This document shows, in pieces, positions 18,284-64,000 of a stretch of 64,000 nt of DNA. A program made the translations under genes and the position numbers. Under the pieces are notes generated by a model. The model made no database searches. It saw nothing but the letters and a program-made list of their open reading frames with translations, and had not been told where the DNA came from. How positions within the stretch are numbered: position 1 is the stretch's first letter; every line of letters starts with the position of its first letter. This stretch comes from an uncultured Muribaculaceae bacterium (GTDB taxonomy: Bacteria; Bacteroidota; Bacteroidia; Bacteroidales; Muribaculaceae), in assembly GCA_947381945.1 (NCBI GenBank), contig CANCXM010000005.1, positions 1 through 64,000 of the forward strand, in the 5' to 3' direction.

Positions 18284-18338
18284 CGGATGACAATTGCCAA
18301 GCTGCGAAGCAGCGATGTGGTGGTAGCCCCTCATCGAG
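18284..18338. repeat. REP-like family B, copy 1
   Basis: The element contains the palindrome GCTGCGAAGCAGC, then GTGGTGGTAGCCCC and TCATCGAG. Related copies are at 50571-50616 (inverted) and 62463-62507. Downstream bases to about 18395 (GGTAACGCAATGAAGCCCGC, GGGCGAAATTGCG) form a further hairpin. Together with the tandem repeats this accounts for most of the 18042-18514 gap. Confidence 0.7.
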
Positions 18339-50570: not shown

Positions 50571-50708
50571 CTCGTGGCGGGGCTATGAGCGCACCGCTGC
50601 TTCGCAGCTTGCTAATCGCTATGCGGATAGGGGGCGGGTTGCTTTTTCTGCGGATTTTGGCTTGCCATGCGGATTGGGTGGGTTGCTTTCTCTGCGGATT
50701 TTAGTTTG
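50571..50708. repeat. REP-like family B copy and 44-bp-period direct repeat
   Basis: An inverted family B element (50571-50616) contains CGCTGCTTCGCAGC. It is followed by two 29-bp near-identical units (50636-50664 and 50680-50708), each GGGTTGCTTTCTCTGCGGAT-like. Upstream (50457-50570) is GC-rich with several small hairpins. No gene is supported in the gap from 50232 to 50862. Confidence 0.7.
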
Positions 50709-60992: not shown

Positions 60993-62084
60993 TCAGGACT
61001 TTTGCGGGTGCGTGCCTGAAGCAGCTTCCTCTCCGCTGAGCATTCCGCAGGCGGCCTCTATGTCCTCGCCTCTTGATGCCCTTATCGTGGCCGTCACACC
61101 CTGCTCGTTAAGACGGTCGCGGAAACGCTCCATCACCTCCATTGAAGCCGTCGGGTGTTCGAAGCCCGGGATGGCGTGGAACCGTATGAGGTTAACCCTG
61201 CAGTCGAGGCCGCGGAGCAGGCGGGCAAGTGCGTCGGCATGGCGGATGTCGTCGTTCACGCCACCCCACACGATATATTCAGCCGACAGACGGCGCTGGT
61301 GGGCGAAATCATATTTCTTAAGGAAATCCATCACCCTCGTCACCGGGAAAGCCTTTTCGACAGGCATAAGCTCCTCGCGTTCCTTAGGGTAGGGGGAGTG
61401 GACGCTTATGGCCACATGCACCTTGGTCTCGTCGAGCAGACGGCGCAGGGTGTCGAGCTTGCCGATGCTTGACACGGTGATTCGTTTCGGGCTCCATGCA
61501 AGACCCCAGGGCGCGGTCAGCACTTCGAGCGCCTTGAGCACTTCGTCGATATTGTCCATAGGCTCACCCATTCCCATGAACACAAGATTGGTCAGACTCC
61601 GGCTCTCCGGGATGGCGAAAATCTGGTTCAGGATACCGGCGGCAGTCAGATTGCCGTGGAAGCCCTGACGCCCTGTCATGCAGAACTTGCACCCCATGCG
61701 GCATCCCGCCTGCGACGACACACACAATGTCGCCCTGTCGCGGTCAGGGATATAGACGGCCTCCACGTCGCGTCCGCCTCGTCCGCTCGTGAGGAAATCG
61801 AAGTCCTTCCCACGGGTGGCGAACAAATATTTCACCGTCCCGTCCTTAGAGCGCGACTCCTTCACCGGAGCCTGTAGCCCGATGCAGTAGTGCTCGTTGA
61901 GCCATTCGCGCGCAGGTTTCGGAAGCTCGGTCATCTCGTCGATGCTCTCCACGCGGTTCACATAAAGCCGTCTCGCCATCTGCTTGGCTGCAAATTTGCG
62001 CAGCCCGGCTTCGGCGGCCACCGATTCGAGTTCAGAAAGAGTCATGCCCAGCAGAGGGCGACGGATGCTGTCTTTTGTTTCCAT
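60993..62084 (-). CDS. rlmN: 23S rRNA (adenine-2-C2)-methyltransferase RlmN
   Basis: This 363-residue radical-SAM enzyme methylates A2503 of 23S rRNA and A37 of some tRNAs. The cluster motif is Cys128-x3-Cys132-x2-Cys135 in CRMGCKFC, with FMGMGEPMDN and a C-terminal conserved Cys in EAACGML near residue 348 that takes part in methyl transfer. The end at 60993 leaves only 107 bp before the HTH gene. Confidence 0.96.
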   Translation of the reverse strand: METKDSIRRPLLGMTLSELESVAAEAGLRKFAAKQMARRLYVNRVESIDEMTELPKPAREWLNEHYCIGLQAPVKESRSKDGTVKYLFATRGKDFDFLTSGRGGRDVEAVYIPDRDRATLCVSSQAGCRMGCKFCMTGRQGFHGNLTAAGILNQIFAIPESRSLTNLVFMGMGEPMDNIDEVLKALEVLTAPWGLAWSPKRITVSSIGKLDTLRRLLDETKVHVAISVHSPYPKEREELMPVEKAFPVTRVMDFLKKYDFAHQRRLSAEYIVWGGVNDDIRHADALARLLRGLDCRVNLIRFHAIPGFEHPTASMEVMERFRDRLNEQGVTATIRASRGEDIEAACGMLSGEEAASGTHPQKS

Positions 62085-62241: not shown

Positions 62242-62318
62242 GGGGTATTAGCTCATCTGGCTAGAGCGCGACACTGGCAGTGTCGAGGTGAGCGGTTCGA
62301 GTCCGCTATACTCCACCA
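62242..62318 (+). tRNA. tRNA-Ala (anticodon GGC)
   Basis: The 77-nt sequence folds as a tRNA: acceptor GGGGTAT/ATACTCC, D-stem GCTC/GAGC, anticodon stem CGACA/TGTCG with loop CTGGCAG (anticodon GGC at 62276-62278), and T-stem AGCGG/CCGCT. It ends in an encoded CCA and reads GCC and GCU codons. A strong terminator follows 15 bp later. Confidence 0.95.
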
Positions 62319-62462: not shown

Positions 62463-62507
62463 CCGGATGGCAGCAAGTGAGCTGCAAAGCAGCGGTATGA
62501 TGGTAGC
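62463..62507. repeat. REP-like family B copy, interrupted at its right end
   Basis: The element keeps GAGCTGCAAAGCAGCGG and ATGATGGTAGC, then departs from the other copies right after GGTAGC (62507), where they continue CCC. The break marks the likely left end of the IS110 element. Bases 62371-62462 show nothing recognisable. Confidence 0.6.
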
Positions 62508-63766
62508 TTTTAGTAGACATGAAGGTCTAGAAATCTAGCTTGATATGTTCAACAGTTCCTATGTTTGCAATGAAAACGCAAACGTAGGAACTTTTTTAAT
62601 TATCCATGTGGATAAAAGAAAAAGCATAAGCCTATAGTTTGTATATTTGAAAACATGTAAGTAAAAACTATAAGAACTTATGCCGATGCAAAGTAACAAA
62701 ATTTCTTTTAAAGGCGAAAATGTCTATGTTGGTATTGACGTGCACCTGAAGCAATGGCACGTCTGCGTACGCAGCAGTTTCCTTAGTCCGAAGCCATTTT
62801 CACAGCCACCGTCCGCACGTTTACTTCATGCGTATCTGACCCGTATGTTCCCTGATGCCGTCTACCACTCTGCCTACGAGGTTGGATTCAGCGGTTTCTC
62901 GGCCCACTTCGAACTGCTCGACTGCGGTATCAATAACATTGTGTTCAATCCCGCAGACATCTGTGACAGCCAGAAGGAACGGGCCCGCAAGAGTGACGCT
63001 GTCGACTGCACGAAAATCTGTCGTAATCTCCAGCAGGGAACGTTGCGTGCAATCCATATCCCTGCGCGGGATGCGCTTGATGACCGCGCACTCTTACGGG
63101 GACGTCAGATGCTCGTAAAGGAACGGGCCAGGACGAAACAACGCATCAAGTCCCTGCTCTATCTGCAAGGTGTGGTCTATCCCGAGGATTTCGCGGACAA
63201 CCGCTCGCATTGGAGCCGCAGGTTCATCATGTGGCTCGAGGGTGTATTTGACGACCCGGCCAGCGGTTGCGCCACCCAGATGGCAATTTTAATCCGCAAT
63301 CTACGTTTCATAAATGTAGAGCTGCTCAGTCTTGACCGTCAGATTGCCGGATTGATAAGACGGAAGCATTCAAGGACTGACACCCTTCTCCGCTCCATCC
63401 CTGGCATCGGGGCACTCACCTCGGCCAAACTCGCGTTGATAATAGGAGACATCAACAGATTTGACACCACCGATTCCCTTGCCGGATATGTCGGACTTGT
63501 CCCCGACATACGCTCATCGGCAGACAAGGAGACTGTCCTTGGCATCACTTTCAGGGGACACCGCGTCCTCCGGTCGGCTCTTATCGAGTCATCGTGGCGC
63601 GCCATTGCACTGGATCCGGCACTTGGAAAGGCCTTTTCCGATTACCGCCAACGCGGAATGCACCCCAACAAGGCCATTGTCCGAATCGCGCGCAAGCTCG
63701 TCAACAGAATATATCACGTCCTTAAAAAAGGAGTCCAATATGAACCCGGAGTGGTCAGATAAAACC
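62508..63766 (+). mobile_element. IS110-family insertion element (boundaries uncertain)
   Basis: The element is defined by its transposase and by a non-coding left end of about 172 bp (62508-62679), the size expected for the region that encodes the bridge RNA in IS110 elements. This left end holds two hairpins: AGTTCCTATGTTTGC/GCAAACGTAGGAACT (62554-62592), then T6; and GCATAAG/CTTATGC with ATAGTTT/AAACTAT (about 62624-62679), ending next to the start codon. No terminal inverted repeats are expected for the family. The right end cannot be placed within the window; the value given is provisional. Confidence 0.6.
62680..63762 (+). CDS. IS110-family transposase (bridge-RNA recombinase)
   Basis: This 360-residue DEDD recombinase has an N-terminal RuvC-like domain with Asp20 (VGIDVHLK), Glu67 (AYEVGFSG), Asp106 and Asp109 (RKSDAVDC), and a C-terminal Transposase_20 domain (about 230-320) with SIPGIGALTSAKL and YVGLVP. 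The Ser278/Ser279 pair in DIRSSADKE is a likely catalytic Ser site. It is intact and probably active. Confidence 0.93.
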   Translation: MPMQSNKISFKGENVYVGIDVHLKQWHVCVRSSFLSPKPFSQPPSARLLHAYLTRMFPDAVYHSAYEVGFSGFSAHFELLDCGINNIVFNPADICDSQKERARKSDAVDCTKICRNLQQGTLRAIHIPARDALDDRALLRGRQMLVKERARTKQRIKSLLYLQGVVYPEDFADNRSHWSRRFIMWLEGVFDDPASGCATQMAILIRNLRFINVELLSLDRQIAGLIRRKHSRTDTLLRSIPGIGALTSAKLALIIGDINRFDTTDSLAGYVGLVPDIRSSADKETVLGITFRGHRVLRSALIESSWRAIALDPALGKAFSDYRQRGMHPNKAIVRIARKLVNRIYHVLKKGVQYEPGVVR

Positions 63767-63910
63767 ACTTGTCCGACATACTTGAAAATTTTCACCGCCT
63801 TGTCCTTATTGCAGCCATAGGTCTGCTTCCTCACAGAATGCGGTAAACAACTCTGTCTGCTGAACCAGCAATTTGCGGCACGACCGCTTATAGAAGTATG
63901 TCGGACAAGT
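63767..63910. repeat. 17-bp inverted repeat flanking a 110-bp segment
   Basis: ACTTGTCCGACATACTT (63767-63783) and its perfect complement (63894-63910) bracket 110 bp with no convincing gene. It may be the IS right-end structure, an independent small mobile repeat or a terminator. Downstream are two more short hairpins, CTGCCT/AGGCAG and GACGCGG/CCGCGTC, up to the end of the window. A minus-strand open frame across this region has no recognisable domain. Confidence 0.7.
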
Positions 63911-64000
63911 TTTTCTTCCTGACGGCTGCCTGTCTGAAGGCAGACAAGTCTGGATAACGGACGCGGAAATACCGCGTCTGTATGGTCTTGTGCGCAAAAA

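What the first reader, a model, noticed from the sequence alone, without database searches (positions are those of the whole stretch)
62463..63766. IS110 element apparently inserted in a REP-like repeat, with a candidate bridge RNA in its left end
The family B repeat at 62463-62507 matches two other copies (18284-18338, 50571-50616 inverted) up to GGTAGC, then breaks. About 172 bp later an intact DEDD transposase begins. IS110-family elements such as IS621 encode a bridge RNA in the non-coding left end and are known to target REP sequences. The left end here holds two sizeable hairpins. If right, this is a Bacteroidota IS110 whose RNA guide recognises a repeat common in its own genome, so new insertion sites would be predictable.
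Basis: partly seen in the sequence, partly recalled or inferred. Interest (0 to 1): 0.7.

Follow-up and report, generated by a model that had tools for sequence, protein, structure and literature searches.

The report
RNA-guided IS1111-type insertion sequence in palindromes

Summary
The transposase (62680-63762) is real and intact, and a REP-like half-repeat does sit to its left. The rest of the reading fails.

The break after GGTAGC is not the element's edge: other genomic repeat copies without the element's left end also read GGTAGC-TTTTA. The left end starts at 62554, 42 bp further right. The right end lies at contig position 64151, beyond the window.

Sub-terminal inverted repeats (CTATGTTTGC...GCAACATAG), a short left end and a long downstream non-coding region make it an IS1111-type element of the IS110 family. 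A covariance model built only from relatives finds the guide RNA at 63789-63896, right of the transposase (E=3.9e-7), and nothing in the left end. Its first loop carries TTGTCCTTAT, the reverse complement of the right flank ATAAGGACA. Across 15 related elements guides match their own flanks (0 of 100,000 permutations).

The target is AAGGGTACA^TAAGGACATAAG, in large palindromes (84 sites with up to 3 mismatches). The element is multi-copy but collapsed in the assembly. Gene order in relatives shows the contig pairs flanks of two different insertions.

It is a new member of a known kind.

The parts
62463..62512 (+). REP-like family B half-repeat with the GGTAGC-TTTTA tail variant; neighbour of the element, not its target
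   Evidence: same tail in C69, C21, C49 without the IS left end; 42 bp from the IS edge
62554..62555 (+). left junction core dinucleotide AG; left edge of the element
   Evidence: alignment of left junctions in C5, C7, C14, C46 and of relatives, AG in all 13 left ends found
62559..62572 (+). left sub-terminal inverted repeat CTATGTTTGCAATG; contains TATGTTTG (62560-62567), the -7 half (TAnnTTTG) of a promoter formed across the circle junction
   Evidence: TTG-N20-TATGTTTG in 13 of 13 elements with both ends
62555..62597 (+). terminator-like hairpin GTTCCTATGTTTGC/GCAAACGTAGGAAC plus T6, overlapping the -7 box; not a guide RNA
   Evidence: fold; the guide-RNA model does not match here
62680..63762 (+). 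DEDD transposase, 360 aa; D20, E67, D106, D109 and S280 kept
   Evidence: Pfam PF01548, PF02371; NF033542 191.8 bits, cut-off 140; alignment
63763..64000 (+). right-end non-coding region (continues outside the window to contig C5 position 64151)
   Evidence: right terminus GCAACATAGA at C5:64142-64151
63767..63910 (+). guide RNA (seekRNA/bridge-RNA type): 17-bp closing helix 63767-63783 / 63894-63910 around two stem-loops
   Evidence: z = -6.2; covariance-model hit 63789-63896, E = 3.9e-7, from relatives only
63800..63809 (+). guide segment TTGTCCTTAT: reverse complement of the right target ATAAGGACA(A), core AT included
   Evidence: own flank ranks first; 9-nt exact match; right flanks in C5, C39, C67
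63830..63836 (+). guide segment CTCACAG: sense match to the left target, only ACAG in the canonical site (weak here)
63889..63896 (+). TATAGAAG, 3' strand of the second loop; same as the element's own right end plus core (CATAGA-AG); probable donor guide
   Evidence: ATAGAAG invariant in all 14 aligned RNAs; right ends read ATAGA-AG in relatives

Best explanation
An IS1111-type member of the IS110 family, about 1.6 kb (contig 62554-64151), present in at least four collapsed copies. The downstream non-coding end gives a two-loop guide RNA. Loop 1 pairs with both strands of the target AAGGGTACA^TAAGGACATAAG, which lies in the arms of large intergenic palindromes. Loop 2 probably reads the element's own joined ends. 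After excision as a circle, the joined ends would form a TTG-N20-TATGTTTG promoter of Bacteroidota type that transcribes transposase and RNA. Shown by sequence: ends, RNA structure, guide-to-flank match, target family. Inferred: transcription, circle formation, present activity, loop 2 function.
For: Ends defined from other copies and relatives. RNA located by a model that never saw the window. Hand-aligned stems: 194 of 195 pairs kept, 12 of 13 pairs compensatory, shuffles mean 132, maximum 149. Right guide versus own flank: diagonal 115.5, permuted mean 71.8, s.d. 4.9, 0 of 100,000. Left guide: 65 versus 43.0, s.d. 3.9, 0 of 100,000. Target family: 84 sites, 0 in control. Unoccupied sites read GGAAGGGTACA-TAAGGACATAAGG exactly as the joined flanks predict. 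The order top-strand complement, then bottom-strand match is the one reported for IS1111 (PMC11187229).
Against: The left guide of the window element matches its canonical left target over ACAG only. Left core AG and right core AT differ, unlike most relatives (AG/AG). The transposase has S-A where S-G is usual. No RNA or excision data exist. Stems were chosen by hand, which flatters the pairing percentage.
Confidence: 0.92

Rival explanations
1. One reading: an IS621-like IS110 element whose bridge RNA lies in 62508-62679 and whose target is REP family B, broken after GGTAGC.
For: REP-B half lies 42 bp left of the element; the left end folds well (z = -6.7).
Against: No guide-RNA model hit in the left end; the fold is dominated by one 14-bp terminator-like hairpin. 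REP-B reads GGTAGC-TTTTA without the IS left end too. No REP-B beside C7, C14, C46, C39, C67 junctions.
Confidence: 0.03
2. The window's present gene order is a true rearrangement made by recombination between element copies, not an assembly error, so the element really lies between REP-B and tonB.
For: The contig is continuous through the element; identical copies can recombine.
Against: In six relatives the gene converging on tonB (right flank) is the gene at the end of contig C7, which stops inside the same IS left end, in matching orientation. In relatives G007, G025 and G009 rlmN and tonB are over 430 kb apart on one contig. Other junction contigs stop 43-55 bp into the element, as expected when reads cannot cross it. 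Either way the two flanks are not one insertion site.
Confidence: 0.2
3. A decayed element: conserved sequence but no longer mobile (S-A instead of S-G in the C-terminal motif).
For:: A281 where most relatives have G; L088 and L089 have D there.
Against: Several near-identical copies at target sites point to recent movement; all DEDD residues and S280 are kept.
Confidence: 0.15

Closest known systems
IS1111 family with seekRNA (ISEc11, ISPa11, ISKpn4; PMC11187229)
   Same: sub-terminal inverted repeats, short left end, long downstream non-coding region, top-strand complement before bottom-strand match, no target duplication; ISPa11 targets REPs
   Different: Bacteroidota-type junction promoter inside the inverted repeat; other target; longer transposase (360 aa against 330-350); no biochemical evidence here
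IS621 / IS110 group bridge RNA (PMC11208160)
   Same: DEDD transposase, two-loop RNA, RNA-guided insertion in a repeat, junction promoter
   Different: RNA in the right end not the left, order of the guide strands reversed, long sub-terminal repeats
REP-targeting IS110-family elements ISPa11, ISPpu9, ISPpu10 (PMC1525189)
   Same: insertion at a fixed point in an abundant palindromic repeat
   Different: target is a large palindrome with inverted arms, not a 20-40 nt REP, and not REP family B

Membership tests
IS1111 group | DEDD transposase with RuvC-like domain and Transposase_20 C-terminal domain | tested here: met
IS1111 group | sub-terminal inverted repeats of about 11-13 bp | tested here: met
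   CTATGTTTGCAATG / CATTGCAACATAG, one-base bulge; core motif conserved in relatives
IS1111 group | longer non-coding region and RNA downstream of tnp | tested here: met
   left end about 125 bp, right end about 390 bp; RNA model hit only on the right
IS1111 group | top-strand complement precedes bottom-strand match in the RNA | tested here: met
   63800-63809 then 63830-63836; same order in relatives
IS1111 group | no target duplication; terminal extensions 7 bp left and 3 bp right | tested here: inconclusive
   no duplication seen; extensions 5-7 and 1-3 bp depending on how the AG/AT core is assigned
IS1111 group | transposase falls in the IS1111 clade | not tested
   no tree against named IS1111 and IS110 references was built
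IS1111 group | RNA co-purifies with transposase; circular intermediate | not testable with these tools
   needs experiment
IS110 group (IS621-like) | bridge RNA in the left end, left end longer than right | tested here: not met
REP family B as target | insertions break the repeat at a fixed point | tested here: not met
Palindrome family with AAGGGTACATAAGGACATAAG as target | right flank of every junction starts at the guide-matched site; empty sites exist | tested here: met
   C5, C39, C67 junctions; 84 sites

The most novel reading that the evidence does not exclude
A Bacteroidota lineage of IS1111-type elements in which the inverted repeat doubles as the -7 half of the circle-junction promoter (TTG-N20-TATGTTTG), the guide is re-aimed from member to member, and in this member a hairpin overlapping the -7 box ends only transcripts read in from outside, because circle-born transcripts would start inside the loop. 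The right-end relic in C69 would record the element inserting into its own guide-coding DNA.
Probability: 0.35. Interest if true: 0.55.

Novelty: new member of a known kind. Interest (0 to 1): 0.42.

Why it matters
RNA-guided insertion elements are candidates for programmable DNA insertion. The published work read here characterises elements from E. coli, Klebsiella and Pseudomonas, and a library search found no paper holding both 'seekRNA' and 'Bacteroid'. This window leads to 15 elements from one class with readable guide-target pairs, and one with dozens of predicted sites in its own genome. It also shows that reading target sites from one short-read contig can mislead, because collapsed copies pair the wrong flanks.

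Tried and rejected
Left-end bridge RNA: fold and covariance model do not support it. REP-B as target: rejected. Rfam scan at E up to 1 of the region found only the tRNA and chance plant/animal microRNA hits on the 35-bp palindrome right of the element. Plain MAFFT alignment of all RNAs misaligns the stems of the window sequence, so the model was built from eight relatives only. Close copies elsewhere: none in plasmids; no left-end hairpin and no relative of the transposase in viral contigs; the nearest relatives are 45-50% identical at protein level. rlmN-side synteny alone could not settle the contig question, because the region beside the tRNA varies; the tonB side did. Searching for a right-donor guide in the 5' strand of loop 2 by eye gave no convincing match to the left end.

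Full report
WHAT IS THERE. The window end carries a 360-aa DEDD transposase at 62680-63762 (Pfam DEDD_Tnp_IS110 and Transposase_20; NCBIfam NF033542 'IS110 family RNA-guided transposase', 191.8 bits). Residues D20, E67, D106, D109 and S280 are kept. To the left lie rlmN (60993-62084, my naming from the translation), tRNA-Ala (62242-62318) and a REP-like half-repeat at 62463-62512. That repeat family is real in this genome: 24 and 20 hits with two patterns, none in reversed controls.

THE CLAIMED BREAK IS NOT AN EDGE. Three other copies of the REP-like half (C69, C21, C49) continue GGTAGC-TTTTA just as the window does, without this element's left end beside them. GGTAGC-CCC and GGTAGC-TTTTA are variants of the repeat. 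The element begins further right. A DNA search of the own genome shows that sequence from 62552 onward recurs at the ends of contigs C7, C14 and C46, and the right end recurs at the ends of C39 and C67. These contigs stop 43-55 bp inside the element, the usual sign of several near-identical copies collapsed by a short-read assembler. That is why the transposase search finds one copy. Left junctions read ...ACAG-TTCCTATGTTTGC and right junctions ...GCAACATAGA-AT-AAGGACA, so the element spans contig C5 62554-64151, about 1.6 kb, and the window cuts its right end.

WHICH KIND. Relatives with 38-50% protein identity share the same ends: CTATGTTTGC on the left, GCAACATAG on the right. The left end is short (about 125 bp here) and the right end long (about 390 bp). 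Sub-terminal inverted repeats with a long downstream non-coding region are the IS1111 signature, while IS110-group elements have a long left end (PMC11187229; PMC11208160).

THE GUIDE RNA. The right-end RNAs of 15 elements share one plan: a long closing helix, a first stem-loop with a large internal loop, and a second stem-loop ending in the motif ATAGAAG. In the window the closing helix is 17 bp and perfect (63767-63783 / 63894-63910). In hand-aligned stems 194 of 195 pairs are kept and 12 of 13 pairs show compensatory change, against a shuffled mean of 132; the stems were chosen by hand, so the percentage is flattered. The independent test is a covariance model built from eight relatives without the window sequence. 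It hits 63789-63896 with E = 3.9e-7 and nothing else at significance in 64 kb, in particular not the left end.

GUIDE AND TARGET. The segment just before the apical stem of loop 1 is TTGTCCTTAT, the reverse complement of ATAAGGACAA; the right flanks are ATAAGGACA(T/A)AAG. For 15 elements the RNA matches its own right flank far better than other elements' flanks (diagonal 115.5; permutations 71.8, s.d. 4.9; 0 of 100,000). Examples: L097 TTGCATTCCT against AGGAATGCAA, and L163 GAAGCAATCT against AGATTGCTTC. The 3' strand of the loop matches the left flank in sense (12 elements, 0 of 100,000), though for the window element only ACAG matches. The order, top-strand complement first, is that reported for IS1111 seekRNAs. 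The permutation tests do not correct for relatedness between elements, but the flanks are unrelated host sequences.

THE TARGET REPEAT. Unoccupied sites read GGAAGGGTACA-TAAGGACATAAGG, exactly the joined flanks. With up to 3 mismatches there are 84 sites, 45 and 39 on the two strands and none in the reversed control, many as the two inverted arms of large palindromes.

THE CONTIG IS MISLEADING. To the right of the element lies a tonB-like gene (C5 64290-65096, minus strand; named from its translation). In six relatives (G020, G017, G002, G025, G011, G019) the gene converging on tonB is the gene at the end of C7, which runs into an IS left end. In relatives G007, G025 and G009, rlmN and tonB lie over 430 kb apart on one contig. 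So the rlmN/REP-B left flank and the tonB right flank belong to different insertions. An assembly mis-join is most likely; recombination between copies is possible. The left junction beside REP-B itself is probably real, since the sequence runs through it without a break; its true right partner is unknown.

PROMOTER AND LEFT HAIRPIN (inference from geometry). Across the joined ends all 13 elements with both ends have TTG-N20-TATGTTTG. TAnnTTTG near -7 and TTTG near -33 is the Bacteroides primary promoter (PMC7366714). The inverted repeat therefore probably doubles as promoter. In this element the -7 box is also the 5' arm of a hairpin followed by six T (62555-62597). A transcript from outside would carry both arms and terminate; one started at the circle junction would begin in the loop and escape. 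This is untested.

VERDICT. A new member of a known kind, with a clear guide-target pair and a corrected anatomy.

Noticed in passing
G000 C38:21763-21803 (L132) and C11:76440-76480 (L133): Solo copies of the element's left-end hairpin (TTCCTATGTTTGCAATGAAAACGCAAACGTAGGAA) without the rest of the element, with the local flanks continuing as palindromic arms; possibly remnants of two inverted copies or a fold-back replication product.
   Followed up: partly
G000 C69:1-372 (L122): The element's right end is joined to its own guide-coding DNA exactly at the left-guide core (ATAGA-AG-AATGCGG), followed by a 318-bp right-end relic; looks like insertion into the element's own guide sequence.
   Followed up: partly
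contig C5 62554-64151 and contig ends C7, C14, C46, C39, C67: C5 pairs flanks of two different insertions; C7 is the likely true left neighbour of the tonB side.
   Followed up: yes
REP-B copies, e.g. L002-L025, L105, L107, L111, L117: REP family B has a conserved head (CCGGATGGCA...AGCTGCGAAGCAGCG..GGTAGC) but several unrelated tails (CCC-type with GCAATGAAGCCCGCAGGGCGAAATTGCG, TTTTACC-type, ATATT-type); it looks like a modular repeat.
   Followed up: partly
C14 and C46 left junctions versus window 62592-62597: Left ends differ in T-run length (7 T versus 6 T in the window and C7), so at least two element variants are present.
   Followed up: no
L225 (relative G002), 3' of tonB: A relative carries a palindrome of different sequence (GGGGACAAGAGGACAAGAGACAAAAGAGTGACAAG...) at the same convergent-gene site, suggesting these palindromes are replaceable bidirectional terminator-like units.
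   Followed up: no
L028, L038, L043, L044, L045 (G007) and L027, L090, L094, L095: A sister element with at least five copies in G007 inserts before GG[A/T]G sequences, often with a few bases in common on the left, a looser target than the window element's.
   Followed up: partly
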